From Diplonema papillatum (taxonomy: Eukaryota; Euglenozoa; Diplonemea; Diplonemida; Diplonemidae), in NCBI GenBank assembly GCA_030068145.1, contig JAPJBO010000070.1:62001-126000 (forward strand): a DNA stretch of 64,000 nucleotides, read 5' to 3'. Positions 1,141 through 60,690 of this stretch are shown here, in pieces. The notes beneath the pieces were generated by a model that had not been told where the DNA came from, did not search any database, and saw only the letters and a program-made list of their open reading frames with translations. Position 1 is the first letter of the stretch, and the number at the start of each line of letters is the position of its first letter. A program made the translations under genes and the position numbers.

Positions 1141-1194
1141 ACACAAAACAAAAAGGTTCCGTGTCGGGGGGCTGGCTAGACTCGGACCGGGATT

Positions 1195-1483
1195 GCAAAA
1201 ACGTGCTTGGAATAGATATGTGCTCAACACCGCACTGGTCCCGTCTGCGCCGTGTTTTGGTCCTTAAGCCACGAACACATAAGGCGGATCATCATCAGCG
1301 CGGAACCTGAGTGTCTGCAGACAGGACAACGGTGTGAGTCTGGTTTGTCAGGCGGCTGTTCGTAGCTCGCCACAGCCAGGACCACCCGTGGTATTAGAGC
1401 ACAGGCGAATCCGTCACGGGGAGGAGTCCCCTAAAACTGTGTCTGAGCAATCAGTTAAAATACTCAGGCCCTCGCCCTGATTG
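1195..1483 (-). repeat. Dispersed repeat B, longest copy
   Basis: This is the most complete copy of B. On the + strand it runs GCAAAAACGTGCTTGG, GTGCTCAACACCGCACTGG, CAGCGCGGAACCTGAGTG, AGCCAGGACCACCCGTG, then ATCCGTCACGGGGAG and CGCCCTGATTG. Other copies keep the left end and stop at different points on the right. That is what 5' truncation of a minus-strand retroposon would give. The minus strand carries a degenerate hammerhead-like core (1226-1298) in which GAAAC has become CAAAAC and stem II is mismatched. Confidence 0.75.
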
Positions 1484-3145: not shown

Positions 3146-4175
3146 CTGCTTTTATTTGAAGGAAAATAATGAGAGAGAAAAGAAAAGACCTGTGAAAAAC
3201 GGGTTTTTGCCGAAAGGAACGGAGGACAAGACTCCCGGAAGACCGGGGTAGGAGAGGCAAAGGACACTTCAGAAGAGAATTGCTCATGGGCGGAAAGAAA
3301 GGGCGCTGCATTTCAGAAGTAGTAGTAGTTCGAACTTGATGTGCAGCAGCAATCTGTGACGAGAGACTGCACAAGTCGCTACCGACTACCCTCTTGGCAC
3401 GCGTCGTGTCATGCTTCGGTCGCTCCTTGCCTCGCGTACCGATGGTTTCCCGGTGCACGTTTCGCGTCAACTGTGGTAGTCTGGCGAGCTCCGATGAATC
3501 AACAGATGATTCAGCGCACTTCCTTTCTCTCTCGCGGGGCCTCACTTCCTCTCCGGTCCATCTTGCCATTGCGTCGCGCTGAGCACCGGCTGCCAGTCCT
3601 CCATGCTGAGTTGTTCTGTTCCTGTACTTGGCGTTTTCTTCAGTCTTCACGCCGCTGAAGAATGGTTACTGGGGTGGGAGACTAATTGCTAATAACGGTA
3701 GACCAGTACTGACCGGGTATCTTAGCTTAGGCGTGTTTTATCGGTAGTTGTCGACGACCTTCGTGGGTTTTGCCACATGTCGATCGCGGCGCCTCAGGAC
3801 GCAGTGAGCCTATGGGTTGGGGCGGGTGAGGTAAGCGAGAGCAAGTGTTGCAAGGGAGCCCTGTTTGCAGTTCGTTATTACTCGGAAGGCTTCAATCTTC
3901 TATTCTAAAGATCCAAAGATCTAATGCGGCACAGAAAACCAAAAAAAAAAAACAAAAAACAAAAAGAAAAGGCGCTTCGTTTTGTTTGTGGGTGCGGGCG
4001 GACGGTTTCCCGCTTGTTGTGCTTCCGATTCCGATTTTTTGGTTTGCTCTGTTTCTTATTCGGGTTCGGCATCAGGATAAACCTACCAAAACAACGGGGC
4101 GACCAGCAAGATTTTACGAAAATACTCGGGTCGGCCGGGTGCATTTTGCAATGGAAGCTATAACGGGGAGAATAC
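3146..4175. other. No gene recognised
   Basis: I see no protein family or RNA gene here. A short copy of the J leader (GGCGCTTCGTTTTGTTTGTG) begins at 3971 behind an A-rich stretch. The largest open frame (3141-3650, minus) has mixed low-complexity sequence and no motif I recognise. Confidence 0.5.
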
Positions 4176-4578
4176 AGGAACGCGCTTGGAAGATGTGTCC
4201 AACACCGCACCCATCTGGACCCATCTGCACCGTGTTTCGGTTCTTCAAGCCACGGACACACAAGGCGGGCCGTGTCATCAGCAGACAGGACAGCGGTATG
4301 AGTCTAATTTGCCAGGCAGCTGTTCGTAGCTCGTCACAGCCAGGACCACCCGTGCTACTAGACCACAGGCAAGTCCGTCACGGGGAGAAGGACCCTGCAA
4401 CCGTGTTTGAGCAACCAGTTAAAAAAAAACTCAGAGCCGCTGAGCAACAATGCGACTGAAAATGAGACATTTTTTCTTCGTCTTCTGAACGCTTACGCCC
4501 GGCACTCCCCCCCCAAACTAAAGCATCAAGGCTTGGCGCACCTTGGGACTTGGCCTTTGCGCTGAACATAAGCCCAGT
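4176..4578. repeat. Dispersed repeat B copy 2 and P fragment
   Basis: 4176-4445 is a B copy starting at GAACGCGCTTGGAAG and running to the AACTCAGAGCC segment. An internal deletion has removed CGCGGAACCTGAGTGTC-like sequence. Its minus strand keeps CTGATGA (4275-4281), GAAAC and the stem III arms, but the stem II arms no longer match. 4512-4578 is a P fragment (AAAGCATCAAGGCTTGGCGC). Confidence 0.65.
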
Positions 4579-5999: not shown

Positions 6000-6203
6000 G
6001 GAGAGTGCAAGAACGTGCTTGCAATGGATATGTGCTCAACACCGCACTGGTGCCGTCTGCGTTTCAGTCCTTTCAGCTACGGACGCATGAGGTGGACTAT
6101 CATCAGCGCGAGTGCAGACAGGACAGTGCTGTGAGTCTGATTTGTCACACGGCTGTTCGTATCTCGTCACAGCCAGGACCACCCGTGCTACCAGAGCACA
6201 GAT
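6000..6203 (-). mobile_element. Family B element with 16-bp target-site duplication
   Basis: The B copy is bounded by AGTCGACTGGATCTGG (5984-5999) and AGTTGACTGGATCTGG (6204-6219). These are 16 bp with one mismatch, as expected for a target-site duplication made by non-LTR-type retrotransposition. The element is 204 bp and lacks the last ~80 bp of B copy 1 on the + right side. I infer minus-strand orientation because the + left end is constant among copies and the right end varies. Confidence 0.7.
6062..6106 (-). ncRNA. Hammerhead-like core in B copy 3 (stem II covariant)
   Basis: On the minus strand CTGATGA (6100-6106) is followed by one extra T, then stem II arms AGTCC and GGACT, then GAAAC. 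Most copies have GGTCC and GGACC here, so the outer pair changed from G-C to A-T on both sides. Stem III is shortened by a deletion. No stem I is visible. This is a structural relic or variant, not a proven ribozyme. Confidence 0.4.
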
Positions 6204-7215: not shown

Positions 7216-8570
7216 ACTCTTGTTGCGCATGGGGGTGTGCTCTTTCTTTTTTGGAAGTGTGAGCTCGCTTTTTTGTGTTGCGTTTCTTCCTTTTCTTTGG
7301 CTTTCCCCGACAGCAAGTGCCACGAAGTAGCCTGCCCAAAGGTGGATTCCGACCTCGGCAGGGTATCTCTGCCGAGCGAGAGTTGTTTGGGTCAGCGGGT
7401 TCTTCTTTTTTTCTCTGAGATGACTGGGGACATAAAACTTTCGAATTCTTTGACTGAGGGGGACGAATCCATCCGCTAGAAGAGGGGGTGGGAGGTGGAA
7501 GCTATTCGAATGTGTAGCCAGAGCCCTGCATCCCAAGCATGCAGGGGTGGGTGGGGATGCAAGAACGTGCTTCGAATGGTAGGCGGTCACAACCGCGGGT
7601 GAGACCCTCAGTGGTATAATCCTTCGACCTTGTCGTGCTTGGATCGTCTCTTTTGTGCAGGATTTGTGTGCACGGAGGTCTGCGTCAGAACCTGGAGTTA
7701 AAGAGGCGGCTGTACTGCAGCCTAAAACGCGTGAAAGTACACAAGAAAAGCGGGTATGACACCCATTCTCTTCAACTCCAGTTTTAACTTCAGCATCTGA
7801 ACTCCACCGTGTGGGGGGCACCAGGCGTTTCGCGAAGCCCGTGTGCGGTGAAGGATTAGCTGCCCATGTTGAAATGCCGCCTCTCGCGGACAGACCACCC
7901 AAACAACCAACGATCTTGTACCCCCGTCCCATCCCCTACTTGTAGCCGGAGTGCTCGGTGGGTGCAGACTGCAAGTCGCTGGATCCCGTCCAACGGAACT
8001 AGTCCACTAACGCCTTGGCAACGATGGAAAACCGTTCCCACCCACAGAGCTACAGCAGCCAGCCTCATGAGACACCACCCGCCGACGATCAGCAAGAAGA
8101 CCCTCCAGGGGATTTCCGGAGACGGCGGCTTGCGCTGGTCAATAAAGCAGCAGCCCTGCACCCAGCAGAACTCTATGTCGTTGGCTTCGTGGAACCCGAG
8201 AAGCAACTGGAAAAAATAAACGTTGCATTTTTTAAGTGTCCATAAAAAAGACAGCCGCTTCGTTTTGTTTGTGTGCCTCTGCCCTGCTTAGTAGTAGAAG
8301 TTTCGACAAACACCGGGGGGGATGTTCAGCCTTTACAAGACAATGTAGGTCAACCCGCAAGATTGTTGACTCTTAACAACGGCCCGGAATCAAACCCTGC
8401 GCGCAGAACGGCCCTTGCGGGACCTTCGTGATTACCAGGTTCATCGTACTCGTATTTGGCCGTTGTCAGTAAAGGATTAACCGCCGGGTATCACAGGTCC
8501 TTGTGCAAGTGACAGGGCGGAATTTGCTCCTTGGGCGGTTCTCTACCGTTTGTGGAGGGTCGCTAGGTCT
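7216..8570. other. No gene recognised; one hairpin and repeat scraps
   Basis: The arms CTCGGCAG (7354-7361) and CTGCCGAG (7369-7376) form a perfect 8-bp stem with a 7-nt loop. A B scrap (GCAAGAACGTGCTTCGAATG) lies at 7559. The longest open frame (7174-7932, minus, 252 codons) begins inside an A-family relic and has no recognisable domain. I do not call it a gene. Confidence 0.4.
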
Positions 8571-14516: not shown

Positions 14517-14585
14517 TCGAAACGAAACTGGTACCCCCGAAAACCCGTGTTGCGTAGTTGGTACGGGGTTTGTGAAACGGCGAGG

Positions 14586-17500
14586 GCTGCATTTTATAAG
14601 CGTACTGGATTATTTTGCCGTAGTGGCAACTTATAAGAGTCCCGCCAGGACCACCTAGACACTTCAGGGCTACATTTTATAAGCGTACTGGATTATTTTG
14701 CCGTAGTGGCAACTTATAAGAGTCCCGCCAGGACCACCTAGACACTTCAAGGCTACATTTTATAAGCGTACTGGATTATTTTGCCGTAGTGGCAACTTAT
14801 AAGAGTCCCGCCAGGACCACCTAGACACTTCAAGGCTACATTTTATAAGCGTACTGGATTATTTTGCCGTAGTGGCAACTTATAAGAGTCCCGCCAGGAC
14901 CACCTAGACACTTCAAGGCTACATTTTATAAGCGTACTGGATTATTTTGCCGTAGTGGCAACTTATAAGAGTCCCGCCAGGACCACCTAGACACTTCAGG
15001 GCTACACTTTATAAGCGTACTGGATTATTTTGCCGTAGTGGCAACTTATAAGAGTCCCGCCAGGACCACCTAGACACTTCAGGGCTACACTTTATAAGCG
15101 TACTGGATTATTTTGCCGTAGTGGCAACTTATAAGAGTCCCGCCAGGACCACCTAGACACTTCAAGGCTACATTTTATAAGCGTACTGGATTATTTTGCC
15201 GTAGTGGCAACTTATAAGAGTCCCGCCAGGACCACCTAGACACTTCAAGGCTACATTTTATAAGCGTACTGGATTATTTTGCCGTAGTGGCAACTTATAA
15301 GAGTCCCGCCAGGACCACCTAGACACTTCAAGGCTACATTTTATAAGCGTACTGGATTATTTTGCCGTAGTGGCAACTTATAAGAGTCCCGCCAGGACCA
15401 CCTAGACACTTCAGGGCTACACTTTATAAGCGTACTGGATTATTTTGCCGTAGTGGCAACTTATAAGAGTCCCGCCAGGACCACCTAGACACTTCAGGGC
15501 TACATTTTATAAGCGTACTGGATTATTTTGCCGTAGTGGCAACTTATAAGAGTCCCGCCAGGACCACCTAGACACTTCAGGGCTACATTTTATAAGCGTA
15601 CTGGATTATTTTGCCGTAGTGGCAACTTATAAGAGTCCCGCCAGGACCACCTAGACACTTCAGGGCTACATTTTATAAGCGTACTGGATTATTTTGCCGT
15701 AGTGGCAACTTATAAGAGTCCCGCCAGGACCACCTAGACACTTCAGGGCTACATTTTATAAGCGTACTGGATTATTTTGCCGTAGTGGCAACTTATAAGA
15801 GTCCCGCCAGGACCACCTAGACACTTCAAGGCTACATTTTATAAGCGTACTGGATTATTTTGCCGTAGTGGCAACTTATAAGAGTCCCGCCAGGACCACC
15901 TAGACACTTCAAGGCTACATTTTATAAGCGTACTGGATTATTTTGCCGTAGTGGCAACTTATAAGAGTCCCGCCAGGACCACCTAGACACTTCAAGGCTA
16001 CATTTTATAAGCGTACTGGATTATTTTGCCGTAGTGGCAACTTATAAGAGTCCCGCCAGGACCACCTAGACACTTCAGGGCTACACTTTATAAGCGTACT
16101 GGATTATTTTGCCGTAGTGGCAACTTATAAGAGTCCCGCCAGGACCACCTAGACACTTCAGGGCTACACTTTATAAGCGTACTGGATTATTTTGCCGTAG
16201 TGGCAACTTATAAGAGTCCCGCCAGGACCACCTAGACACTTCAGGGCTACACTTTATAAGCGTACTGGATTATTTTGCCGTAGTGGCAACTTATAAGAGT
16301 CCCGCCAGGACCACCTAGACACTTCAGGGCTACACTTTATAAGCGTACTGGATTATTTTGCCGTAGTGGCAACTTATAAGAGTCCCGCCAGGACCACCTA
16401 GACACTTCAGGGCTACACTTTATAAGCGTACTGGATTATTTTGCCGTAGTGGCAACTTATAAGAGTCCCGCCAGGACCACCTAGACACTTCAGGGCTACA
16501 CTTTATAAGCGTACTGGATTATTTTGCCGTAGTGGCAACTTATAAGAGTCCCGCCAGGACCACCTAGACACTTCAGGGCTACATTTTATAAGCGTACTGG
16601 ATTATTTTGCCGTAGTGGCAACTTATAAGAGTCCCGCCAGGACCACCTAGACACTTCAGGGCTACACTTTATAAGCGTACTGGATTATTTTGCCGTAGTG
16701 GCAACTTATAAGAGTCCCGCCAGGACCACCTAGACACTTCAGGGCTACACTTTATAAGCGTACTGGATTATTTTGCCGTAGTGGCAACTTATAAGAGTCC
16801 CGCCAGGACCACCTAGACACTTCAGGGCTACATTTTATAAGCGTACTGGATTATTTTGCCGTAGTGGCAACTTATAAGAGTCCCGCCAGGACCACCTAGA
16901 CACTTCAGGGCTACATTTTATAAGCGTACTGGATTATTTTGCCGTAGTGGCAACTTATAAGAGTCCCGCCAGGACCACCTAGACACTTCAGGGCTACACT
17001 TTATAAGCGTACTGGATTATTTTGCCGTAGTGGCAACTTATAAGAGTCCCGCCAGGACCACCTAGACACTTCAGGGCTACACTTTATAAGCGTACTGGAT
17101 TATTTTGCCGTAGTGGCAACTTATAAGAGTCCCGCCAGGACCACCTAGACACTTCAGGGCTACACTTTATAAGCGTACTGGATTATTTTGCCGTAGTGGC
17201 AACTTATAAGAGTCCCGCCAGGACCACCTAGACACTTCAGGGCTACACTTTATAAGCGTACTGGATTATTTTGCCGTAGTGGCAACTTATAAGAGTCCCG
17301 CCAGGACCACCTAGACACTTCAGGGCTACACTTTATAAGCGTACTGGATTATTTTGCCGTAGTGGCAACTTATAAGAGTCCCGCCAGGACCACCTAGACA
17401 CTTCAGGGCTACACTTTATAAGCGTACTGGATTATTTTGCCGTAGTGGCAACTTATAAGAGTCCCGCCAGGACCACCTAGACACTTCAGGGCTACACTTT

Positions 17501-20500
17501 ATAAGCGTACTGGATTATTTTGCCGTAGTGGCAACTTATAAGAGTCCCGCCAGGACCACCTAGACACTTCAGGGCTACATTTTATAAGCGTACTGGATTA
17601 TTTTGCCGTAGTGGCAACTTATAAGAGTCCCGCCAGGACCACCTAGACACTTCAGGGCTACATTTTATAAGCGTACTGGATTATTTTGCCGTAGTGGCAA
17701 CTTATAAGAGTCCCGCCAGGACCACCTAGACACTTCAGGGCTACACTTTATAAGCGTACTGGATTATTTTGCCGTAGTGGCAACTTATAAGAGTCCCGCC
17801 AGGACCACCTAGACACTTCAGGGCTACACTTTATAAGCGTACTGGATTATTTTGCCGTAGTGGCAACTTATAAGAGTCCCGCCAGGACCACCTAGACACT
17901 TCAGGGCTACACTTTATAAGCGTACTGGATTATTTTGCCGTAGTGGCAACTTATAAGAGTCCCGCCAGGACCACCTAGACACTTCAAGGCTACATTTTAT
18001 AAGCGTACTGGATTATTTTGCCGTAGTGGCAACTTATAAGAGTCCCGCCAGGACCACCTAGACACTTCAGGGCTACATTTTATAAGCGTACTGGATTATT
18101 TTGCCGTAGTGGCAACTTATAAGAGTCCCGCCAGGACCACCTAGACACTTCAAGGCTACACTTTATAAGCGTACTGGATTATTTTGCCGTAGTGGCAACT
18201 TATAAGAGTCCCGCCAGGACCACCTAGACACTTCAAGGCTACATTTTATAAGCGTACTGGATTATTTTGCCGTAGTGGCAACTTATAAGAGTCCCGCCAG
18301 GACCACCTAGACACTTCAGGGCTACACTTTATAAGCGTACTGGATTATTTTGCCGTAGTGGCAACTTATAAGAGTCCCGCCAGGACCACCTAGACACTTC
18401 AGGGCTACACTTTATAAGCGTACTGGATTATTTTGCCGTAGTGGCAACTTATAAGAGTCCCGCCAGGACCACCTAGACACTTCAGGGCTACACTTTATAA
18501 GCGTACTGGATTATTTTGCCGTAGTGGCAACTTATAAGAGTCCCGCCAGGACCACCTAGACACTTCAGGGCTACACTTTATAAGCGTACTGGATTATTTT
18601 GCCGTAGTGGCAACTTATAAGAGTCCCGCCAGGACCACCTAGACACTTCAGGGCTACATTTTATAAGCGTACTGGATTATTTTGCCGTAGTGGCAACTTA
18701 TAAGAGTCCCGCCAGGACCACCTAGACACTTCAGGGCTACACTTTATAAGCGTACTGGATTATTTTGCCGTAGTGGCAACTTATAAGAGTCCCGCCAGGA
18801 CCACCTAGACACTTCAGGGCTACACTTTATAAGCGTACTGGATTATTTTGCCGTAGTGGCAACTTATAAGAGTCCCGCCAGGACCACCTAGACACTTCAA
18901 GGCTACATTTTATAAGCGTACTGGATTATTTTGCCGTAGTGGCAACTTATAAGAGTCCCGCCAGGACCACCTAGACACTTCAGGGCTACATTTTATAAGC
19001 GTACTGGATTATTTTGCCGTAGTGGCAACTTATAAGAGTCCCGCCAGGACCACCTAGACACTTCAGGGCTACACTTTATAAGCGTACTGGATTATTTTGC
19101 CGTAGTGGCAACTTATAAGAGTCCCGCCAGGACCACCTAGACACTTCAGGGCTACACTTTATAAGCGTACTGGATTATTTTGCCGTAGTGGCAACTTATA
19201 AGAGTCCCGCCAGGACCACCTAGACACTTCAGGGCTACACTTTATAAGCGTACTGGATTATTTTGCCGTAGTGGCAACTTATAAGAGTCCCGCCAGGACC
19301 ACCTAGACACTTCAGGGCTACACTTTATAAGCGTACTGGATTATTTTGCCGTAGTGGCAACTTATAAGAGTCCCGCCAGGACCACCTAGACACTTCAGGG
19401 CTACACTTTATAAGCGTACTGGATTATTTTGCCGTAGTGGCAACTTATAAGAGTCCCGCCAGGACCACCTAGACACTTCAGGGCTACACTTTATAAGCGT
19501 ACTGGATTATTTTGCCGTAGTGGCAACTTATAAGAGTCCCGCCAGGACCACCTAGACACTTCAGGGCTACACTTTATAAGCGTACTGGATTATTTTGCCG
19601 TAGTGGCAACTTATAAGAGTCCCGCCAGGACCACCTAGACACTTCAGGGCTACACTTTATAAGCGTACTGGATTATTTTGCCGTAGTGGCAACTTATAAG
19701 AGTCCCGCCAGGACCACCTAGACACTTCAGGGCTACACTTTATAAGCGTACTGGATTATTTTGCCGTAGTGGCAACTTATAAGAGTCCCGCCAGGACCAC
19801 CTAGACACTTCAGGGCTACACTTTATAAGCGTACTGGATTATTTTGCCGTAGTGGCAACTTATAAGAGTCCCGCCAGGACCACCTAGACACTTCAGGGCT
19901 ACACTTTATAAGCGTACTGGATTATTTTGCCGTAGTGGCAACTTATAAGAGTCCCGCCAGGACCACCTAGACACTTCAGGGCTACACTTTATAAGCGTAC
20001 TGGATTATTTTGCCGTAGTGGCAACTTATAAGAGTCCCGCCAGGACCACCTAGACACTTCAGGGCTACACTTTATAAGCGTACTGGATTATTTTGCCGTA
20101 GTGGCAACTTATAAGAGTCCCGCCAGGACCACCTAGACACTTCAGGGCTACACTTTATAAGCGTACTGGATTATTTTGCCGTAGTGGCAACTTATAAGAG
20201 TCCCGCCAGGACCACCTAGACACTTCAGGGCTACACTTTATAAGCGTACTGGATTATTTTGCCGTAGTGGCAACTTATAAGAGTCCCGCCAGGACCACCT
20301 AGACACTTCAGGGCTACACTTTATAAGCGTACTGGATTATTTTGCCGTAGTGGCAACTTATAAGAGTCCCGCCAGGACCACCTAGACACTTCAGGGCTAC
20401 ACTTTATAAGCGTACTGGATTATTTTGCCGTAGTGGCAACTTATAAGAGTCCCGCCAGGACCACCTAGACACTTCAGGGCTACACTTTATAAGCGTACTG

Positions 20501-23500
20501 GATTATTTTGCCGTAGTGGCAACTTATAAGAGTCCCGCCAGGACCACCTAGACACTTCAGGGCTACACTTTATAAGCGTACTGGATTATTTTGCCGTAGT
20601 GGCAACTTATAAGAGTCCCGCCAGGACCACCTAGACACTTCAGGGCTACACTTTATAAGCGTACTGGATTATTTTGCCGTAGTGGCAACTTATAAGAGTC
20701 CCGCCAGGACCACCTAGACACTTCAGGGCTACACTTTATAAGCGTACTGGATTATTTTGCCGTAGTGGCAACTTATAAGAGTCCCGCCAGGACCACCTAG
20801 ACACTTCAGGGCTACACTTTATAAGCGTACTGGATTATTTTGCCGTAGTGGCAACTTATAAGAGTCCCGCCAGGACCACCTAGACACTTCAGGGCTACAC
20901 TTTATAAGCGTACTGGATTATTTTGCCGTAGTGGCAACTTATAAGAGTCCCGCCAGGACCACCTAGACACTTCAGGGCTACACTTTATAAGCGTACTGGA
21001 TTATTTTGCCGTAGTGGCAACTTATAAGAGTCCCGCCAGGACCACCTAGACACTTCAGGGCTACACTTTATAAGCGTACTGGATTATTTTGCCGTAGTGG
21101 CAACTTATAAGAGTCCCGCCAGGACCACCTAGACACTTCAGGGCTACACTTTATAAGCGTACTGGATTATTTTGCCGTAGTGGCAACTTATAAGAGTCCC
21201 GCCAGGACCACCTAGACACTTCAGGGCTACACTTTATAAGCGTACTGGATTATTTTGCCGTAGTGGCAACTTATAAGAGTCCCGCCAGGACCACCTAGAC
21301 ACTTCAGGGCTACACTTTATAAGCGTACTGGATTATTTTGCCGTAGTGGCAACTTATAAGAGTCCCGCCAGGACCACCTAGACACTTCAGGGCTACACTT
21401 TATAAGCGTACTGGATTATTTTGCCGTAGTGGCAACTTATAAGAGTCCCGCCAGGACCACCTAGACACTTCAGGGCTACACTTTATAAGCGTACTGGATT
21501 ATTTTGCCGTAGTGGCAACTTATAAGAGTCCCGCCAGGACCACCTAGACACTTCAGGGCTACACTTTATAAGCGTACTGGATTATTTTGCCGTAGTGGCA
21601 ACTTATAAGAGTCCCGCCAGGACCACCTAGACACTTCAGGGCTACACTTTATAAGCGTACTGGATTATTTTGCCGTAGTGGCAACTTATAAGAGTCCCGC
21701 CAGGACCACCTAGACACTTCAGGGCTACACTTTATAAGCGTACTGGATTATTTTGCCGTAGTGGCAACTTATAAGAGTCCCGCCAGGACCACCTAGACAC
21801 TTCAGGGCTACACTTTATAAGCGTACTGGATTATTTTGCCGTAGTGGCAACTTATAAGAGTCCCGCCAGGACCACCTAGACACTTCAGGGCTACACTTTA
21901 TAAGCGTACTGGATTATTTTGCCGTAGTGGCAACTTATAAGAGTCCCGCCAGGACCACCTAGACACTTCAGGGCTACACTTTATAAGCGTACTGGATTAT
22001 TTTGCCGTAGTGGCAACTTATAAGAGTCCCGCCAGGACCACCTAGACACTTCAGGGCTACACTTTATAAGCGTACTGGATTATTTTGCCGTAGTGGCAAC
22101 TTATAAGAGTCCCGCCAGGACCACCTAGACACTTCAGGGCTACACTTTATAAGCGTACTGGATTATTTTGCCGTAGTGGCAACTTATAAGAGTCCCGCCA
22201 GGACCACCTAGACACTTCAGGGCTACACTTTATAAGCGTACTGGATTATTTTGCCGTAGTGGCAACTTATAAGAGTCCCGCCAGGACCACCTAGACACTT
22301 CAGGGCTACACTTTATAAGCGTACTGGATTATTTTGCCGTAGTGGCAACTTATAAGAGTCCCGCCAGGACCACCTAGACACTTCAGGGCTACACTTTATA
22401 AGCGTACTGGATTATTTTGCCGTAGTGGCAACTTATAAGAGTCCCGCCAGGACCACCTAGACACTTCAGGGCTACACTTTATAAGCGTACTGGATTATTT
22501 TGCCGTAGTGGCAACTTATAAGAGTCCCGCCAGGACCACCTAGACACTTCAGGGCTACACTTTATAAGCGTACTGGATTATTTTGCCGTAGTGGCAACTT
22601 ATAAGAGTCCCGCCAGGACCACCTAGACACTTCAGGGCTACACTTTATAAGCGTACTGGATTATTTTGCCGTAGTGGCAACTTATAAGAGTCCCGCCAGG
22701 ACCACCTAGACACTTCAGGGCTACACTTTATAAGCGTACTGGATTATTTTGCCGTAGTGGCAACTTATAAGAGTCCCGCCAGGACCACCTAGACACTTCA
22801 GGGCTACACTTTATAAGCGTACTGGATTATTTTGCCGTAGTGGCAACTTATAAGAGTCCCGCCAGGACCACCTAGACACTTCAGGGCTACACTTTATAAG
22901 CGTACTGGATTATTTTGCCGTAGTGGCAACTTATAAGAGTCCCGCCAGGACCACCTAGACACTTCAGGGCTACACTTTATAAGCGTACTGGATTATTTTG
23001 CCGTAGTGGCAACTTATAAGAGTCCCGCCAGGACCACCTAGACACTTCAGGGCTACACTTTATAAGCGTACTGGATTATTTTGCCGTAGTGGCAACTTAT
23101 AAGAGTCCCGCCAGGACCACCTAGACACTTCAGGGCTACACTTTATAAGCGTACTGGATTATTTTGCCGTAGTGGCAACTTATAAGAGTCCCGCCAGGAC
23201 CACCTAGACACTTCAGGGCTACACTTTATAAGCGTACTGGATTATTTTGCCGTAGTGGCAACTTATAAGAGTCCCGCCAGGACCACCTAGACACTTCAGG
23301 GCTACACTTTATAAGCGTACTGGATTATTTTGCCGTAGTGGCAACTTATAAGAGTCCCGCCAGGACCACCTAGACACTTCAGGGCTACACTTTATAAGCG
23401 TACTGGATTATTTTGCCGTAGTGGCAACTTATAAGAGTCCCGCCAGGACCACCTAGACACTTCAGGGCTACACTTTATAAGCGTACTGGATTATTTTGCC

Positions 23501-26500
23501 GTAGTGGCAACTTATAAGAGTCCCGCCAGGACCACCTAGACACTTCAGGGCTACACTTTATAAGCGTACTGGATTATTTTGCCGTAGTGGCAACTTATAA
23601 GAGTCCCGCCAGGACCACCTAGACACTTCAGGGCTACACTTTATAAGCGTACTGGATTATTTTGCCGTAGTGGCAACTTATAAGAGTCCCGCCAGGACCA
23701 CCTAGACACTTCAGGGCTACACTTTATAAGCGTACTGGATTATTTTGCCGTAGTGGCAACTTATAAGAGTCCCGCCAGGACCACCTAGACACTTCAGGGC
23801 TACACTTTATAAGCGTACTGGATTATTTTGCCGTAGTGGCAACTTATAAGAGTCCCGCCAGGACCACCTAGACACTTCAGGGCTACACTTTATAAGCGTA
23901 CTGGATTATTTTGCCGTAGTGGCAACTTATAAGAGTCCCGCCAGGACCACCTAGACACTTCAGGGCTACACTTTATAAGCGTACTGGATTATTTTGCCGT
24001 AGTGGCAACTTATAAGAGTCCCGCCAGGACCACCTAGACACTTCAGGGCTACACTTTATAAGCGTACTGGATTATTTTGCCGTAGTGGCAACTTATAAGA
24101 GTCCCGCCAGGACCACCTAGACACTTCAGGGCTACACTTTATAAGCGTACTGGATTATTTTGCCGTAGTGGCAACTTATAAGAGTCCCGCCAGGACCACC
24201 TAGACACTTCAGGGCTACACTTTATAAGCGTACTGGATTATTTTGCCGTAGTGGCAACTTATAAGAGTCCCGCCAGGACCACCTAGACACTTCAGGGCTA
24301 CACTTTATAAGCGTACTGGATTATTTTGCCGTAGTGGCAACTTATAAGAGTCCCGCCAGGACCACCTAGACACTTCAGGGCTACACTTTATAAGCGTACT
24401 GGATTATTTTGCCGTAGTGGCAACTTATAAGAGTCCCGCCAGGACCACCTAGACACTTCAGGGCTACACTTTATAAGCGTACTGGATTATTTTGCCGTAG
24501 TGGCAACTTATAAGAGTCCCGCCAGGACCACCTAGACACTTCAGGGCTACACTTTATAAGCGTACTGGATTATTTTGCCGTAGTGGCAACTTATAAGAGT
24601 CCCGCCAGGACCACCTAGACACTTCAGGGCTACACTTTATAAGCGTACTGGATTATTTTGCCGTAGTGGCAACTTATAAGAGTCCCGCCAGGACCACCTA
24701 GACACTTCAGGGCTACACTTTATAAGCGTACTGGATTATTTTGCCGTAGTGGCAACTTATAAGAGTCCCGCCAGGACCACCTAGACACTTCAGGGCTACA
24801 CTTTATAAGCGTACTGGATTATTTTGCCGTAGTGGCAACTTATAAGAGTCCCGCCAGGACCACCTAGACACTTCAGGGCTACACTTTATAAGCGTACTGG
24901 ATTATTTTGCCGTAGTGGCAACTTATAAGAGTCCCGCCAGGACCACCTAGACACTTCAGGGCTACACTTTATAAGCGTACTGGATTATTTTGCCGTAGTG
25001 GCAACTTATAAGAGTCCCGCCAGGACCACCTAGACACTTCAGGGCTACATTTTATAAGCGTACTGGATTATTTTGCCGTAGTGGCAACTTATAAGAGTCC
25101 CGCCAGGACCACCTAGACACTTCAGGGCTACACTTTATAAGCGTACTGGATTATTTTGCCGTAGTGGCAACTTATAAGAGTCCCGCCAGGACCACCTAGA
25201 CACTTCAGGGCTACACTTTATAAGCGTACTGGATTATTTTGCCGTAGTGGCAACTTATAAGAGTCCCGCCAGGACCACCTAGACACTTCAGGGCTACACT
25301 TTATAAGCGTACTGGATTATTTTGCCGTAGTGGCAACTTATAAGAGTCCCGCCAGGACCACCTAGACACTTCAGGGCTACACTTTATAAGCGTACTGGAT
25401 TATTTTGCCGTAGTGGCAACTTATAAGAGTCCCGCCAGGACCACCTAGACACTTCAGGGCTACACTTTATAAGCGTACTGGATTATTTTGCCGTAGTGGC
25501 AACTTATAAGAGTCCCGCCAGGACCACCTAGACACTTCAGGGCTACACTTTATAAGCGTACTGGATTATTTTGCCGTAGTGGCAACTTATAAGAGTCCCG
25601 CCAGGACCACCTAGACACTTCAGGGCTACACTTTATAAGCGTACTGGATTATTTTGCCGTAGTGGCAACTTATAAGAGTCCCGCCAGGACCACCTAGACA
25701 CTTCAGGGCTACACTTTATAAGCGTACTGGATTATTTTGCCGTAGTGGCAACTTATAAGAGTCCCGCCAGGACCACCTAGACACTTCAGGGCTACACTTT
25801 ATAAGCGTACTGGATTATTTTGCCGTAGTGGCAACTTATAAGAGTCCCGCCAGGACCACCTAGACACTTCAGGGCTACACTTTATAAGCGTACTGGATTA
25901 TTTTGCCGTAGTGGCAACTTATAAGAGTCCCGCCAGGACCACCTAGACACTTCAGGGCTACACTTTATAAGCGTACTGGATTATTTTGCCGTAGTGGCAA
26001 CTTATAAGAGTCCCGCCAGGACCACCTAGACACTTCAGGGCTACACTTTATAAGCGTACTGGATTATTTTGCCGTAGTGGCAACTTATAAGAGTCCCGCC
26101 AGGACCACCTAGACACTTCAGGGCTACACTTTATAAGCGTACTGGATTATTTTGCCGTAGTGGCAACTTATAAGAGTCCCGCCAGGACCACCTAGACACT
26201 TCAGGGCTACACTTTATAAGCGTACTGGATTATTTTGCCGTAGTGGCAACTTATAAGAGTCCCGCCAGGACCACCTAGACACTTCAGGGCTACACTTTAT
26301 AAGCGTACTGGATTATTTTGCCGTAGTGGCAACTTATAAGAGTCCCGCCAGGACCACCTAGACACTTCAGGGCTACACTTTATAAGCGTACTGGATTATT
26401 TTGCCGTAGTGGCAACTTATAAGAGTCCCGCCAGGACCACCTAGACACTTCAGGGCTACACTTTATAAGCGTACTGGATTATTTTGCCGTAGTGGCAACT

Positions 26501-28693
26501 TATAAGAGTCCCGCCAGGACCACCTAGACACTTCAGGGCTACACTTTATAAGCGTACTGGATTATTTTGCCGTAGTGGCAACTTATAAGAGTCCCGCCAG
26601 GACCACCTAGACACTTCAGGGCTACACTTTATAAGCGTACTGGATTATTTTGCCGTAGTGGCAACTTATAAGAGTCCCGCCAGGACCACCTAGACACTTC
26701 AGGGCTACACTTTATAAGCGTACTGGATTATTTTGCCGTAGTGGCAACTTATAAGAGTCCCGCCAGGACCACCTAGACACTTCAGGGCTACACTTTATAA
26801 GCGTACTGGATTATTTTGCCGTAGTGGCAACTTATAAGAGTCCCGCCAGGACCACCTAGACACTTCAGGGCTACACTTTATAAGCGTACTGGATTATTTT
26901 GCCGTAGTGGCAACTTATAAGAGTCCCGCCAGGACCACCTAGACACTTCAGGGCTACACTTTATAAGCGTACTGGATTATTTTGCCGTAGTGGCAACTTA
27001 TAAGAGTCCCGCCAGGACCACCTAGACACTTCAGGGCTACACTTTATAAGCGTACTGGATTATTTTGCCGTAGTGGCAACTTATAAGAGTCCCGCCAGGA
27101 CCACCTAGACACTTCAGGGCTACACTTTATAAGCGTACTGGATTATTTTGCCGTAGTGGCAACTTATAAGAGTCCCGCCAGGACCACCTAGACACTTCAG
27201 GGCTACACTTTATAAGCGTACTGGATTATTTTGCCGTAGTGGCAACTTATAAGAGTCCCGCCAGGACCACCTAGACACTTCAGGGCTACACTTTATAAGC
27301 GTACTGGATTATTTTGCCGTAGTGGCAACTTATAAGAGTCCCGCCAGGACCACCTAGACACTTCAGGGCTACACTTTATAAGCGTACTGGATTATTTTGC
27401 CGTAGTGGCAACTTATAAGAGTCCCGCCAGGACCACCTAGACACTTCAGGGCTACACTTTATAAGCGTACTGGATTATTTTGCCGTAGTGGCAACTTATA
27501 AGAGTCCCGCCAGGACCACCTAGACACTTCAGGGCTACACTTTATAAGCGTACTGGATTATTTTGCCGTAGTGGCAACTTGTAAGAGTCCCGCCAGGACC
27601 ACCTAGACACTTCAGGGCTACACTTTATAAGCGTACTGGATTATTTTGCCGTAGTGGCAACTTGTAAGAGTCCCGCCAGGACCACCTAGACACTTCAGGG
27701 CTACACTTTATAAGCGTACTGGATTATTTTGCCGTAGTGGCAACTTATAAGAGTCCCGCCAGGACCACCTAGACACTTCAGGGCTACACTTTATAAGCGT
27801 ACTGGATTATTTTGCCGTAGTGGCAACTTGTAAGAGTCCCGCCAGGACCACCTAGACACTTCAGGGCTACACTTTATAAGCGTACTGGATTATTTTGCCG
27901 TAGTGGCAACTTGTAAGAGTCCCGCCAGGACCACCTAGACACTTCAGGGCTACACTTTATAAGCGTACTGGATTATTTTGCCGTAGTGGCAACTTATAAG
28001 AGTCCCGCCAGGACCACCTAGACACTTCAGGGCTACACTTTATAAGCGTACTGGATTATTTTGCCGTAGTGGCAACTTATAAGAGTCCCGCCAGGACCAC
28101 CTAGACACTTCAGGGCTACACTTTATAAGCGTACTGGATTATTTTGCCGTAGTGGCAACTTGTAAGAGTCCCGCCAGGACCACCTAGACACTTCAGGGCT
28201 ACACTTTATAAGCGTACTGGATTATTTTGCCGTAGTGGCAACTTATAAGAGTCCCGCCAGGACCACCTAGACACTTCAGGGCTACACTTTATAAGCGTAC
28301 TGGATTATTTTGCCGTAGTGGCAACTTATAAGAGTCCCGCCAGGACCACCTAGACACTTCAGGGCTACACTTTATAAGCGTACTGGATTATTTTGCCGTA
28401 GTGGCAACTTGTAAGAGTCCCGCCAGGACCACCTAGACACTTCAGGGCTACACTTTATAAGCGTACTGGATTATTTTGCCGTAGTGGCAACTTGTAAGAG
28501 TCCCGCCAGGACCACCTAGACACTTCAGGGCTACACTTTATAAGCGTACTGGATTATTTTGCCGTAGTGGCAACTTATAAGAGTCCCGCCAGGACCACCT
28601 AGACACTTCAGGGCTACACTTTATAAGCGTACTGGATTATTTTGCCGTAGTGGCAACTTATAAGAGTCCCGCCAGGACCACCTAGACACTTCA
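14586..28693 (+). repeat. 83-bp satellite array, 170 copies
   Basis: The 83-bp unit (GCTACACTTTATAAGCG at its start, CCACCTAGACACTTCAGG at its end) is repeated head to tail. Unit starts fall at 14586, 14669, 14752 and so on. 170 units would end at 28695, and the array stops two bases short of this, so no unit has gained or lost a base. Copies are nearly identical; I saw four variable sites. Unit 1 has GCTGCA. Base 7 is T in many of units 1-54 and in unit 127, otherwise C. CAAGG replaces CAGGG only at unit junctions up to unit 52. TTGTAAG replaces TTATAAG only in units 157, 158, 160, 161, 164, 167 and 168. Each unit has the small stem TTGCC-GTAGT-GGCAA. All frames contain stops. Function is unknown. 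Confidence 0.98.
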
Positions 28694-28832
28694 GCTAGCC
28701 ACCAGCTGCATACGGAGCCTACGAATGTAGCCCTGCCGTAGTGGCAACTTATAAGAGTCCCGCCAGGACCACCTAGACACTTCAGCTAGCCACCAGCTGC
28801 ATACGGAGCCTACGAATGTAGCCCTGCCGTAG
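28694..28832 (+). repeat. 91-bp hybrid satellite units at the right edge
   Basis: One and a half units of 91 bp follow the array. About 51 bp (TGCCGTAGTGGCAAC through CTAGACACTTCA) is the same as in the 83-bp unit. The rest is replaced by 40 new bases starting GCTAGCCACCAGCTGCATAC and ending AATGTAGCCC. The second copy breaks off after CCTGCCGTAG. TGTAGCCC in the hybrid is the reverse complement of GGGCTACA at the 83-bp unit junction. Confidence 0.95.
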
Positions 28833-29184: not shown

Positions 29185-29898
29185 AATACTCGACGTTGCT
29201 GCTTCGACTCCGAATGGAAGGGAGGAAATATAGAGGTAAGGGGCAAATACAATACAAACACAATCTGATTTAGAGTGAAAGTTCGCTTGAAACTCCGGGG
29301 TTTTAAAGTCTCCGGGTGACCTTCGTCGTTAAGGGAAGATATTCTTTGTGCTCTGAGTGTCGTAAGAGTGGTGGTTACACGAGGTAAGAGGATCGGTGGG
29401 TACCTTGGTCGTTGGTCATTGGTGGTTTCGGCCATTGTCCACATACCTTACTTACGGTAGGCCCTCCTCAGTATGGTGCCGCAGTAGGTGACTGTCTGTC
29501 TTCTTGGTACCGTCTGACCGTCTCTTTTCGTGTATTTGTGGTGCTGCTTATGGTTTGCGCAGGTTGAATATCCGTAACTATATCGTATTGCAATACGGGT
29601 GGGGTGCTACAATTAACGTAGCAAGGAGTCGCGAATAGAAGTAAATAAAGAAAGAATTTTTTTTTTTAAATTTGTTGATGATTGTTTGATTTGTTCTTCG
29701 CTTACACCACCCTGTGTTGCTTTCTCACTCAGGACTTTTGACCTGTCGTGTTTGTGTGATTTGTCGTGTCGGGGTAGACCCGCACGACCTCACGTCCGTT
29801 CAACACGTAGTTCGGTAGTTACAGCACTTGGGATCCCTTCTGTTCTTTGTCGGGCAGCATCGTCGAGCATTTCCTTTCAAGCTGGCGCTTATGTAAAA
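29185..29898 (+). mobile_element. Short retroposon-like element D, copy 1, interrupted by A
   Basis: It starts AATACTCGACG, followed by TGCTTCGACTCCGAATGG and AGGGAGGAAATATAGAGG. It ends CATTTCCTTTCAAGCTGGCG, CTTATGTAAAAC. A 415-bp A element (29272-29686) splits it at TGATTT; the D sequence resumes exactly at GTTCTTCGCTTACACC. Without the insert and its duplicated bases the element is about 293 bp, close to the undisturbed copies at 30288 (282 bp) and 36078 (299 bp). No coding capacity. Confidence 0.8.
29272..29686. mobile_element. Family A element, 415 bp, with 6-bp target-site duplication
   Basis: It is inserted in D copy 1 between two TGATTT copies (29266-29271 and 29687-29692). It starts AGAGTGAAAGTTCGCTTGAA, continues CTCCGGGGTTTTAAAGTCTC, CGGGTGACCTTCG and AGTGGTTACACGAGG, and ends near a T-rich stretch and TGTTGATGATTGTT. 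There are no terminal inverted repeats. It is the only copy whose two ends are both fixed by a duplication and whose length exceeds 200 bp. If read on the minus strand, the constant end would be followed by an A-rich target. Confidence 0.75.
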
Positions 29899-33004: not shown

Positions 33005-33092
33005 TCATGGTATGCGGTGTTTGCTTGTATCGGGAGGATTGGCCTGTTAGTACATGATGAACATGATCGCTGATTAATCTATTCATCCATTT
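33005..33092 (+). repeat. Dispersed repeat S, copy 2
   Basis: GTTTGCTTGTATCGGGAGG, ATTGGCCTGTTAGTAC and ATGATCGCTGATTAATC match S copy 1 at 2035-2125. Confidence 0.5.
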
Positions 33093-33163
33093 TCGGGACC
33101 GGTGCATTCGGCAGGTGAGTTGTTACACACTCATTATCGGACGCCGACTTCCATGGCCACCGC

Positions 33164-33428
33164 GGAATGGATATGTGCCCAGCACCGCACTGGTCCCGTC
33201 TGCGCCGTGCTTCGGTCCACATGAGGCGGACCATCATCAGCGCGGAGCCTGAGTGCCCGCAGACAGGACAGCGGGTGTGAGTCTGGTTCGTCAGGCGGCT
33301 GTTCGTAGCTCGCAGCCAGGACCACCCGTGCTACTAGAGCACAGGCGAATCCGTCACGGGGAGAAGGCCCCTACAACCGTGTCTGAGCAATCAGTTAAAA
33401 AACTCAGGGCACTCGCCCTGATTGTGAC
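33164..33428 (-). repeat. Dispersed repeat B, copy 4
   Basis: It runs from GGAATGGATATGTGCC to TCGCCCTGATTGTGAC, including GAATCCGTCACGGGGAG, so it is almost as long as B copy 1. It lacks the GCAAGAACGTGC left tip. It contains the most compact hammerhead-like core of the window. Confidence 0.75.
33181..33240 (-). ncRNA. Hammerhead-like core in B copy 4 (stem III covariant)
   Basis: On the minus strand CTGATGA (33234-33240) is followed by one T, stem II GGTCC / GGACC closing a 9-nt loop, GAAGC, and stem III (GCACGGCGC with GTGCGGTGC), then T. In other copies the base pair closing stem III is A-T (GAAAC with GGTGT); here both partners changed, giving G-C. The order and spacing match a hammerhead except for the extra T before stem II. 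No stem I can be drawn between the flanks. Confidence 0.45.
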
Positions 33429-33914
33429 TGCGACTCGCGAGGGAGCTTTCGTTACGAGGGTGGGGAGGACATAGCGATGATACGTGTTGGGGTGCACGGC
33501 CGTGCAAACCGAGGTGGAGGGGAGGTCCCTGCCCCCATCGCTGCAGCATCACGTACAGGCGGAAGACTATCTTTCACAGGCCTGACTGAAAGCTCGCATC
33601 AAGGCTGTGGGAAAACACGCTTCGATATCTTCTTGTCCTATTTTTTTTTTTTTTTTTTTTTTTTGGAGGGGGGGATGTGGGGTCTACTTTCGGCTTGCGT
33701 TTTCGTTGCCGTTTCGAGTGGGTCACTGTGCGATGCTACGACCAGATGGTCTAGAAGACGGAGTGCCTCCTGGGTAATAGAACAAGTCTTCCGGTGGTTG
33801 ACTGTGTATTAAGGAAAACTGAACTGCGCAAGAACGGAATCGTCGAGCGGAGCAGGGAGGGGGGAGAGAGCCACTCTAAATTCGAGCTCCAGCTTCTCAG
33901 GCAACGGCTCCACC

Positions 33915-40230: not shown

Positions 40231-40358
40231 AATTGCAAGATTGTGCTTGGAATTGGGTATTTTGCTCAACACCGCACTGGTCCCGTGTTTCGGTCCTTTA
40301 AGCCACGGACACATAAGGCGGACCATCATCAGCGCGGAACCTGAGTGTCTGCAGACAG
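40231..40358 (-). mobile_element. Family B element with 12-bp target-site duplication
   Basis: GTCAAAGGGGGG directly precedes (40218-40230, one G longer) and follows (40359-40370) a 128-bp B copy that begins AATTGCAAGATTGTGCTTGG and ends CTGCAGACAG. The left end agrees with B copy 3 while the right end stops about 80 bp earlier. Variable right and fixed left ends fit a 5'-truncated insertion read on the minus strand. Confidence 0.7.
40268..40332 (-). ncRNA. Hammerhead-like core in B copy 5
   Basis: Minus strand: CTGATGA (40326-40332), one T, GGTCC, a 23-nt loop, GGACC, GAAAC, then a stem III shortened to ACAC / GTGT, and T at the expected cleavage position. GCC and GGC inside the loop could extend stem II across a TTAAA bulge. 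Stem I is missing. Confidence 0.4.
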
Positions 40359-40645
40359 GTCAAAGGGGGGCAGGGTGTTATTGAAAACGACTTGTGGGGA
40401 AAACCTGGGTCATAATTCGAACGTTTTGTCAGGAAGAAATCCGATTATTTTGTTATTTGTGTGAATTGGTGCGTATAAATCGAGTTTTTTTGAGTGCGAA
40501 CCCTCCGGAGAAAGGCCGATCACGCTTCTAAGTGAGTGCGTCAGACTCACAGGATTTCCGGGTACCTGACAGCAGGCGGTCTTTGTAGCTCTTCTTGAGC
40601 TCGGAACACAGCCGGGACTCGCTACATTCCTCCTGGTGACTTGCG

Positions 40646-45520: not shown

Positions 45521-45934
45521 AGTATGGCGCTTTCTTTTGTTTGTGTGCACTAGCGGAACTCACCTGCTTTGGTAAGTTTCATGTAGTACGCTGTCAACTA
45601 CTAATTTTTAGTACCAACAATGCATTGTTAACACAAAAAGGCGAGACAGTGCTGGACGAATTTCGAAGGTCGGCTCCGTTCAACATGAACGCCCGGCGAG
45701 CGAGGTCTGAAGCTATCGGTGAACACTTCGATCCTAACGTCCAAAAGCAGGTGGGGGGAAAATCTTAGTTTAATGTTTAGGCAGGACACTGGGGGGAAAC
45801 TCTTAGTTTTGGGGGGGGGGGAAGGGGGGGGTTTGCAATAACGTGCTTGGAATGGGTATGTGCTCAACACCGCACTGGTCCCGTCTGCGCCGTGTTTCGG
45901 TCCTTTAAGCCACGGACACATAAGGCGGACCACT
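45521..45934. repeat. J copy 3, L copy and B copy 6
   Basis: 45521-45641 is J (GGCGCTTTCTTTTGTTTGTG to ATGCATTGTTAACAC). 45748-45800 is an L copy cut short, followed by a second L start (GGGGGGAAACTCTTAGTTTT). 45835-45934 is B, which stops within the CTGATGA segment: the left stem II partner remains, but the ribozyme-like core is cut off at GGACCA. Confidence 0.65.
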
Positions 45935-49741: not shown

Positions 49742-50073
49742 CGGGGGGTCGCTGTTGTTGGTGCTGGAAAGAAAGGCAAGATTTTATTTGCGGTGGGTCT
49801 CCGTTGGTCTTCGTTTGTGCTACCTCCGTTCTTTACACTCGTTCTCTTTTCTACTCGATCGAACTGAATTCGCGGGGTTCGGTGCTCAACACCGCACTGT
49901 CCTGTCTGCACCGTGTTTCGGTCCTTAAGTCACGGACACATGAGGCGGACCATTATCAGCGCGGAGCACTTAAGTGGCGTCAGGCGGCTGTTTGTAGCTC
50001 GTCGCAGCCAGGACCACCGGGGGAAATCTTAGGGATATTTGGTTTGCTGTCTCGTGTGTGTTTGATGCTAGCA
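49742..50073. repeat. T copy 4, B copy 7 and L copy
   Basis: 49742-49862 is T (GGTCGCTGTTGTTGGTGCTG to TCGTTCTCTTTTCTACTCG). 49882-50019 is B. On the minus strand it keeps GGTCC, GGACC, GAAAC and stem III (ACACGGTGC / GTGCGGTGT), but CTGATGA has become CTGATAA. 50019-50073 is an L copy (GGAAATCTTAGGGATATTTG, GATGCTAGCATC). Confidence 0.65.
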
Positions 50074-59599: not shown

Positions 59600-59631
<32 letters not shown>

Positions 59632-60145: not shown

Positions 60146-60430
60146 CCGGGGGGGAAACCTTAGTGCAATGTTTAGGCAGGACACTGCCTCACATGCTGGC
60201 ATCAAGTCTTCTTCGAAGAAAGTGTAAAAATGGATAGGGGAAAAGGAAAAGGGGGAAGGGGGATTGCAAGAACGTGCTTGGAATGGATATGTGCTCAACA
60301 CCACACTGGGTCGCATCTGCACCGGGTTTCGGTCCTTGAGCCTGCAGAACACTTAAGGCGGACCATCATCAGCGCGGAACCGCGCGGAGCCTGAGTGTCA
60401 GCAGACAGGACAGGCGGTGTGGGGCTGGCT
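60146..60430. repeat. L copy and B copy 8
   Basis: 60146-60222 is L (GGAAACCTTAGTGCAATGTT, TAGGCAGGACACTGCCTC, CATGCTGGCATCAAG). 60266-60430 is B, with GCAAGAACGTGCTTGGAATG on the left and GACAGGACAGGCGGTGTGG on the right. L precedes B at about 50-130 bp here, at 40029 and at 45748. Confidence 0.65.
60297..60372 (-). ncRNA. Hammerhead-like core in B copy 8
   Basis: Minus strand: CTGATGA (60366-60372), T, GGTCC, loop, GGACC, GAAAC, then a weak stem III (CCGGTGC with GTGTGGTGT, partly wobble pairs) and T. Two mismatches in stem III suggest decay. Confidence 0.35.
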
Positions 60431-60510
60431 TGTGTGTTTTCCCTTTGAATTCGAAGAAGAGAGGCGAAGGGCCGCCTCCCGGGAGCGGGGGCTAGGGGAC
60501 TCCTAAAGCC

Positions 60511-60690
60511 TGACGTGCTTGGAAATGGCGTGTATGCTCAACAGTGTGTCCTGCGCAGTGCTTAGGTCCTTTGTTAGCGACGGACACTTTGGGCGGACCA
60601 TCGACAGTGCGGGACCTGCGTTGTCGGCAGACGGGACGGCCAATGCGAGTCTGGTTCTGTCGGGCGGCTGTTCGGACCATGGTGGCAGGG
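60511..60690 (-). repeat. Dispersed repeat B, strongly diverged copy 9
   Basis: GACGTGCTTGGAAATGGCG, TATGCTCAACAGTGTG, GTTAGCGACGGACACTTTGG, GGCAGACGGGACGGCC and GGCGGCTGTTCGGACC follow B order. The CTGATGA segment reads CTGTCGA. Older than the other copies. Confidence 0.55.

What the first reader, a model, noticed from the sequence alone, without database searches (positions are those of the whole stretch)
33181..33240. Hammerhead-ribozyme-like core in dispersed repeat B, with one compensatory change in each of two stems
On the minus strand of B the order is CTGATGA, one T, GGTCC, loop, GGACC, GAAAC, a stem of up to 9 bp (ACACGGCGC with GTGCGGTGT, one G-G mismatch), then T. This is the linear order of a hammerhead with closed stems II and III. 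It recurs at 1226-1298, 6062-6106, 33181-33240, 40268-40332, 49888-49959 and 60297-60372, to varying degrees of decay. In the copy at 6000 the outer stem II pair is A-T (AGTCC / GGACT) instead of G-C. In this copy the pair closing stem III is G-C (GAAGC, GGTGC) instead of A-T. Both are double substitutions that keep pairing. Against it: an extra T lies between CTGATGA and stem II, the putative cleavage triplet would be GUU (GCU here), and I cannot draw a stem I between the flanks. Hammerheads are known in short retroelements and Penelope-like elements, so a ribozyme in a SINE-sized repeat is plausible.
Basis: partly seen in the sequence, partly recalled or inferred. Interest (0 to 1): 0.78.

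Follow-up and report, generated by a model that had tools for sequence, protein, structure and literature searches.

The report
Retroelement carrying a scrambled hammerhead ribozyme
A short jumping element with many copies in this eukaryotic genome appears to contain a hammerhead self-cutting RNA whose three strands come in an unusual, knotted order that has rarely been described before; cutting has not been tested.

Summary
Repeat B is a 500-nt unit of a non-coding, non-LTR retroelement: the copies examined mostly share one 3' end beside a C-run, several have target duplications, and they include 0.3-, 1.3- and 2.3-unit head-to-tail forms. Inside that helix the intact unit holds every conserved hammerhead piece in the order C-S-G: CCACG-CUGAUGA-U-GGUCC, then UGUGUC^CGUGG inside 'loop II', then GGACC-GAA-ACACG. 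This is the non-circular 'type CSG' permutation of Eckert et al. 2023 (PMC10085705), known there from two similar metagenome sequences that cleave in vitro. With at least 4 bp per stem the descriptor, written after the motif was seen, hit 0 times in 150 shuffled windows. The copy at 33181 lost the cleavage strand by deletion; the window's intact copy is at 40284-40337. Against: inconclusive covariation, an extra U after CUGAUGA, competing nested folds, and preferred copy starts upstream of the predicted cut. Cleavage, circular RNA, host species and helper enzyme are not shown. Verdict: retrozyme-like element with a probable type-CSG hammerhead, about 0.6.

The parts
33164..33446 (-). The finding's copy of element B (unit 186-484): 5'-truncated, 3' tail lost, abutting a 28S rRNA fragment. 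Block C and GGACC-GAA present, block S (cleavage strand) deleted
33084..33180 (-). 28S rRNA fragment at the 3' end of that copy (the two predictions overlap by 17 nt)
   Evidence: Rfam RF02543, 64.2 bits
40233..40359 (-). Copy of B (unit 367-500) with target duplication CCCCCCTTTGAC; the only window copy with the complete C-S-G motif at 4 bp or more per stem
40320..40337 (-). Block C of that copy: stem I 5' CCGCG (40337-40333), CTGATGA (40332-40326), extra T (40325), stem II 5' GGTCC (40324-40320)
40303..40313 (-). Block S: stem III 3' TGTGT (40313-40309), C17 (40308), predicted cut between 40308 and 40307, stem I 3' CGTGG (40307-40303)
40284..40296 (-). Block G: stem II 3' GGACC (40296-40292), GAA (40291-40289), stem III 5' ACACG (40288-40284)
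6006..6201 (-). Copy of B (unit 288-499), TSD CCAGATCCAGTC(A/G)ACTA; C-S-G motif with 3 bp or more per stem; stem II has A-U, stem III reads ACGCA/TGCGT
1193..1483 (-). Copy of B (unit 208-500), core damaged (CAAA for GAAA)
4175..4426 (-). Copy of B (unit 230-497), block C mostly deleted
45833..45932 (-). Copy of B (unit 401-500), 99.0% identical, truncated just before stem II so most of block C is missing
49882..50018 (-). Decayed copy of B (unit 306-473)
60264..60433 (-). 0.3-unit copy of B (unit 344-500), block S damaged
60513..60674 (-). Diverged copy (75.9%); CTGTCGA and TAA replace CTGATGA and GAA
33975..34036 (-). Short decayed piece of B (unit 328-394)
7558..7596 (-). Very short 3' piece of B (unit 460-499), tail CCATTCGAAGCACGTTCTTGCAT before CCCC

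Best explanation
Repeat B is a non-coding, non-autonomous non-LTR retroelement with a 500-nt repeating unit, organised like a retrozyme. Shown on the copies examined: unit-periodic head-to-tail copies, a common 3' end beside C-runs, target duplications in several, 5' truncation, and a preferred start of multi-unit copies at unit 337-352. Inferred: its RNA starts near unit 340-350, reverse transcription is primed by a nicked G-run of the target on the unit's own CCCCCC (unit 2-7), and an unidentified LINE-type enzyme copies it. The hairpin domain (unit 354-470), present in both repeats of a 1.3-unit copy, caps its long helix with a hammerhead core in block order C-S-G: C 389-406, S 413-423, G 430-442, with two 6-nt linkers. 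It is predicted to cut between C418 and C419. Cutting in both repeats of one transcript would release a 500-nt monomer that could be ligated into a circle (inferred, by analogy with retrozymes).
For: Unit and multimers. Common tail: 26 of 30 loci. 5' ends: of 40 listed junction copies (all 100% identical to the query) I fetched the 5' flank of 20, and 15 of these 20 start at unit 337-352. Young 0.3-unit copies with the same start: one was read (L051, unit 345-500, 99.4%), and 11 of the 40 scored rows, that one among them, start beside a C-run and run past six Cs at the 3' end, which I take as 0.3-unit copies; 7 stop at the six Cs, 22 lack the 5' C-run. Target duplications. Ribozyme: the CUGAUGA, GAAA and GUC letters and three 5-bp stems are present. 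Given blocks C and G, a segment pairing 5 bp on both sides of an NUH arises in 0.00275 of shuffled 500-nt units and 0.00035 of 120-nt stretches. Full descriptor, 4 bp or more per stem: 0 hits in 150 shuffled windows, both strands. 101 of 142 distinct copies keep all three stems at 5 bp (sample chosen by similarity). Three positions in unit 345-500 vary at 8% or more; the one inside the motif (391, A or G opposite U421) keeps stem I paired. The motif fits inside the outer helix. A 4-bp AGGU/GCCU (384-387/407-410; both halves intact in 122 of 142) could bridge stems I and II, as proposed for the published permuted forms. The permutation cuts in vitro elsewhere. Column shuffles of 46 copies reach the observed number of two-sided pair changes (3) in only 4 of 500, but see against.
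Against: One extra U sits between CUGAUGA and stem II. The nested minimum-energy fold uses stem I and III letters otherwise, and stem II has probability 0.55. Preferred copy starts lie 66-81 nt upstream of the predicted cut, so the templates copied were not cut there, and no excess of starts at 419 shows (few copies). The descriptor was written after the motif was seen. No transcript or circle data, and no relative elsewhere: the exact core pattern has no match in viral contigs or genome contigs. A diverged copy (60513-60674) has lost CUGAUGA and GAA.
Confidence: 0.6

Rival explanations
1. B is the same retroelement, but the hairpin is only a structure for reverse-transcriptase recognition or RNA stability; the hammerhead letters in C-S-G order are a coincidence.
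For: Covariation inconclusive. The nested hairpin is stable (z -2.77) and could by itself explain a conserved domain. The extra U, the pseudoknot and copy starts upstream of the cut all fit a non-cutting RNA. Rfam finds no ribozyme.
Against: Chance of blocks C and G (0.13 per window) together with a fitting block S (0.0004-0.003) is small; 0 descriptor hits at 4 bp per stem in 150 shuffled windows. Short tandem retroelements carrying hammerheads are known in animals (PMC7229834).
Confidence: 0.3
2. A canonical hammerhead (type I-III), in monomer or dimer.
For: CUGAUGA, stem II and GAAA in the usual spacing.
Confidence: 0.03
3. Another self-cleaving ribozyme (for example HDV-like) or a promoter defines the 5' end near unit 339-350; the hammerhead letters are incidental.
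For: 15 of 20 copies start at 337-352. A 6-bp helix 339-344/382-387 opening with G.U is possible by eye (not scored: one search tested a register shifted by one).
Against: No HDV-like match in Rfam; I found no P3, L3 or P1.1 equivalent by eye; starts are spread over 16 nt, more like a transcription start or RT fall-off than a precise cut.
Confidence: 0.07

Closest known systems
Type-CSG hammerhead ribozymes CSG-1 and CSG-2 (Eckert et al. 2023, PMC10085705)
   Same: Block order C-S-G, CUGANGA, GAAA, NUH, three pseudoknotted stems; a helix proposed to join stems I and II
   Different: Published pair: two similar sequences found only in metagenomes, genetic context not given in the sections read. 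B: one extra U after CUGAUGA, part of a eukaryotic retroelement with many copies, activity untested
Metazoan non-LTR retrozymes (Cervera and de la Pena 2020, PMC7229834)
   Same: Short non-coding tandem units of a few hundred nt, ribozyme in each unit, target duplications longer than 4 bp when present
   Different: Those carry canonical type I hammerheads, RNAs of about 170-400 nt, GC under 50%, circRNA shown; B has the CSG order, a 500-nt unit of 55% GC, C-run targets, no RNA data
Plant LTR retrozymes (PMC4918200)
   Same: Ribozyme in both terminal repeats, so double cutting gives one circle; a promoter in the repeat is known for NbRZ1 (PMC12029980)
   Different: Type III hammerhead, 4-bp TSD, PBS and PPT like Ty3-gypsy; B has TSDs of about 10-17 bp and 5' truncation; PBS and PPT were not searched for in B
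Penelope-like elements with pLTR and hammerhead (PMC11167929)
   Same: Partial-tandem copies, terminal pseudo-repeats with a hammerhead motif, internal start of reverse transcription
   Different: PLEs encode RT and GIY-YIG endonuclease; the 500-nt B unit is too short to encode them

Membership tests
Type-CSG hammerhead | Blocks in 5'-3' order C, S, G | tested here: met
   unit 389-406, 413-423, 430-442
Type-CSG hammerhead | Conserved CUGANGA, GAAA with A15.1-U16.1, NUH, G10.1-C11.1 | tested here: met
   CUGAUGA 394-400, GAAA 435-438, A438-U417, GUC 416-418, G402-C434; one extra U401; position names recalled
Type-CSG hammerhead | Stems I, II, III | tested here: met
   5 bp each in the consensus; 101 of 142 distinct copies. 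Pairing is by complementarity, not by a computed fold
Type-CSG hammerhead | Covariation of the stems | tested here: inconclusive
   46 copies, too alike: 3 two-sided cells; 4 of 500 column shuffles reach this, slid controls give 0-4
Type-CSG hammerhead | Cleavage at the predicted site, lost on mutating the core G | not testable with these tools
   needs in vitro transcription
Hammerhead types I-III | Circular block order with a stem I partner next to the NUH | tested here: not met
Retrozyme | Non-coding retroelement with a self-cleaving ribozyme in each repeat | tested here: inconclusive
   motif in repeats; cleavage unproven
Retrozyme | Retrotransposed head-to-tail multimers with TSDs | tested here: met
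   1.3 to 2.3-unit copies; TSD next to multimers in L018, L062 and L064
Retrozyme | Circular RNA of unit length | not testable with these tools
   no RNA data
tRNA/5S/7SL-type SINE | Head related to a known Pol III RNA | tested here: not met
   no tRNA, no Rfam match; T6 inside the unit
Penelope-like element | RT with GIY-YIG endonuclease sharing the terminal repeats | not tested

The most novel reading that the evidence does not exclude
A young eukaryotic retrozyme family whose hammerhead runs in the non-circular C-S-G order: the first such ribozyme with a known genetic setting (within the papers searched), present in many copies and mobilised into C-runs by a LINE-type enzyme.
Probability: 0.55. 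Interest if true: 0.87.

Novelty: new variant of a known kind. Interest (0 to 1): 0.76.

Why it matters
Non-circular permutation of a natural RNA was reported in 2023, and its authors call the evidence for the CSG order weaker because they had only two similar sequences, found only in metagenomes. A mobile element with dozens of near-identical C-S-G cores in hand, and probably many more in the genome, would give this form a biological setting, a natural series of variants, and a directly testable cut site. It would also show that retrozyme-like propagation does not need a classical hammerhead topology, and that covariance models, which hold no pseudoknots (recalled), miss such elements.

Tried and rejected
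HDV-like fold at unit 339: only a 6-bp P1 fits by eye, and one search scored the wrong register. tRNA-derived SINE: no tRNA. Partner LINE by shared 3' tail: the candidate in L018 proved to be a 31-nt B tail in a duplicated host stretch. Many open LINE frames exist, with relatives that carry endonuclease, RT and RNase H domains (domain names recalled from accessions), but none was tied to B. C-S-G hit at 29471: 3 bp in stem III, not kept in its relatives; taken as chance. Covariation as proof: little power. Exact pattern search for the core in viral contigs and genome contigs: 0. Literature on C-run-specific LINEs: one search, no hits. Host species: not identified.

Papers: PMC10085705 read as parts 1-3 of 8 of the text plus sections 15, 16 and 18 (part 1 of 2) and passages; PMC7229834 abstract and sections 13, 17; PMC12029980, PMC6155905, PMC4918200, PMC11167929 passages only; others seen as listings. 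The statement that a CSG hammerhead in a retroelement is not in print rests in the held PMC library only.

Full report
Setting. The window lies in a 271-Mb, 2,910-contig genome that is eukaryotic by its 28S-like fragments.

What B is. A search with the 261-nt finding copy gave 2,996 first-look candidates, of which 40 were scored, yielding 42 matches; the first-look figure is a candidate count, not a verified copy number. Of the 30 loci fetched, 26 end in the tail ...CATTCCAAGCACGTTCTTGCAA (two differences allowed; exceptions L001, the finding's own copy, L002, L003 and L024), usually followed by a C-run, while 5' ends vary. Several copies show target duplications that begin in the C-run, for example CCAGATCCAGTC(A/G)ACTA around 6006-6201 and CCCCCCTTTGAC around 40233-40359. 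This is the anatomy of target-primed reverse transcription. Longer copies repeat head to tail: L061 and L062 hold 2.3 units with a period of exactly 500 bp, L063 to L067 1.3 to 1.6 units (one unit of L063 is shortened), and all seven end at unit position 500. The unit itself holds TCCCCCC at positions 1-7, so a target G-run could prime on it.

Where copies begin. To avoid a query biased to one start I searched with the unit junction (all 40 listed hits 100% identical) and read the 5' flank of 20 of the 40. Fifteen of 20 start at unit 337-352; the others at 80, 176, 189, 216 and 389. An exact pattern for copies starting here beside a C-run has 92 matches on one strand; the 504 on the other strand count overlapping C-run starts. 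Young 0.3-unit copies with the same start exist: L051 holds one, read in full. In one search, of the 40 scored rows 11 start beside a C-run and run beyond six Cs at the 3' end (taken as 0.3-unit copies from C-run length; the L051 copy is among them), 7 stop at six Cs as at an internal junction, and 22 have no 5' C-run there. So RNA with a 5' end near 340-350 seems to be the usual full-length template, with 0, 1 or 2 whole units behind the first 150 nt. The transcription-start reading is inference; a promoter in the terminal repeat is known for the plant retrozyme NbRZ1 (PMC12029980, passages).

The fold. The minimum-energy fold extends this to 22 pairs, 354-375 with 445-470. A natural copy of the domain (L062) folds better than 199 of 200 shuffles (z -2.77).

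The hammerhead. The letters before that C, UGUGU, pair with ACACG starting at the last A of GAAA. So all three hammerhead helices can form, 5 bp each, with a GUC triplet, inside the long helix and compatible with it. But the strand that is cut sits between the two halves of stem II. In the naming of Eckert et al. (PMC10085705) the blocks run C-S-G. They found two similar type-CSG sequences, only in metagenomes, cutting in vitro at 0.004 and 0.03 per minute, and regard the evidence for biological relevance as weaker than for type SGC.

Chance. Blocks C and G alone: 0.13 per shuffled window. Block S with 5 bp on both sides, given C and G: 0.00275 anywhere in a shuffled unit, 0.00035 within 120 nt. 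The full descriptor with at least 4 bp per stem: 0 in 150 second-order Markov shuffles of 64 kb on both strands; with 3 bp, 3 hits, 0.02 per window. The window holds one hit at 4 bp (40332) and three at 3 bp: two B copies (40332, 6106) and one unrelated stretch at 29471. The descriptor was set after the motif was seen, so these figures are generous to it.

Copies. Of 142 distinct copies, a sample picked by similarity, 111, 107 and 101 keep the descriptor at 3, 4 and 5 bp. The finding's own copy, 33181-33240, does not: 14 nt of loop II, with the cut site and stem I strand, are missing. Three positions in unit 345-500 vary at 8% or more: 364, 391 and 477; 391 (A or G facing U421) is the only one in the motif and keeps pairing, while 364 A to U breaks a pair of the outer helix.

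Covariation. Inconclusive. In 46 copies the C-S-G plus outer-helix structure shows 3 two-sided changes, one each in stem II, stem III and the outer helix, each in a single copy. Column shuffles reach 3 in 4 of 500, and the covariation score in 6 of 500, but partners slid by 1 to 3 columns give 0 to 4 such changes, and the tool warns that related sequences can beat the shuffles without structure. Most copies descend from a few recent sources, so the test has little power. The copy at 6006-6201 has ACGCA/TGCGT in stem III and A-U in stem II, a single old copy.

Against the ribozyme reading: the extra U after CUGAUGA (Eckert et al. say that insertions there do not exceed one or two nucleotides in known alignments); the competing nested fold; the lack of decisive covariation; and copy starts upstream of the predicted cut, which show that those copied RNAs were uncut at their first motif. 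Slow cutting, as in CSG-1, or copying of read-through multimers would fit; so would no cutting at all.

Proposed cycle. Transcription from inside the unit (inferred); RNA of 1.3 or more units with two hammerhead domains; partial cutting after C418 giving 500-nt monomers and perhaps circles (inferred); reverse transcription by a LINE-type enzyme from a nicked G-run primed on the unit's C6 (inferred from anatomy); 5'-truncated or 0.3, 1.3 and 2.3-unit copies (shown). Internal initiation on tandem RNA has been seen for a Penelope-like element (PMC11167929, passages).

Verdict. A retrozyme-like element (about 0.9) carrying a probable type-CSG hammerhead (about 0.6 overall). New variant of a known kind.

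Noticed in passing
window 14583-28785: A 14.2-kb array of an 83-bp tandem repeat, 171 copies, 99% matches.
   Followed up: no
window 33084-33180 and 59522-59671: Two separate 28S rRNA fragments (Rfam 64 and 119 bits, different parts of the gene); the first abuts a B copy, as template switching during reverse transcription might produce.
   Followed up: partly
window 29352-29571 (minus): Another repeated stretch with a weak C-S-G-like motif (CTGAGGA, GGCC/GGCC, GTA); relatives in L013 and L028 do not keep it.
   Followed up: yes
genome G000, e.g. L071-L077: Many RT-bearing open frames, up to 1,662 codons, often several places with the same score, suggesting recent LINE activity; relatives of one carry endonuclease, RT and RNase H accessions.
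   Followed up: partly
L031-L060: In the 30 multi-unit B copies, fetched with a query that itself began with a C-run, insertion sites are C-rich, many with long runs of C.
   Followed up: partly
window 9664-11271: Several tandem arrays with periods of 8-44 bp that stay open in several overlapping frames.
   Followed up: no
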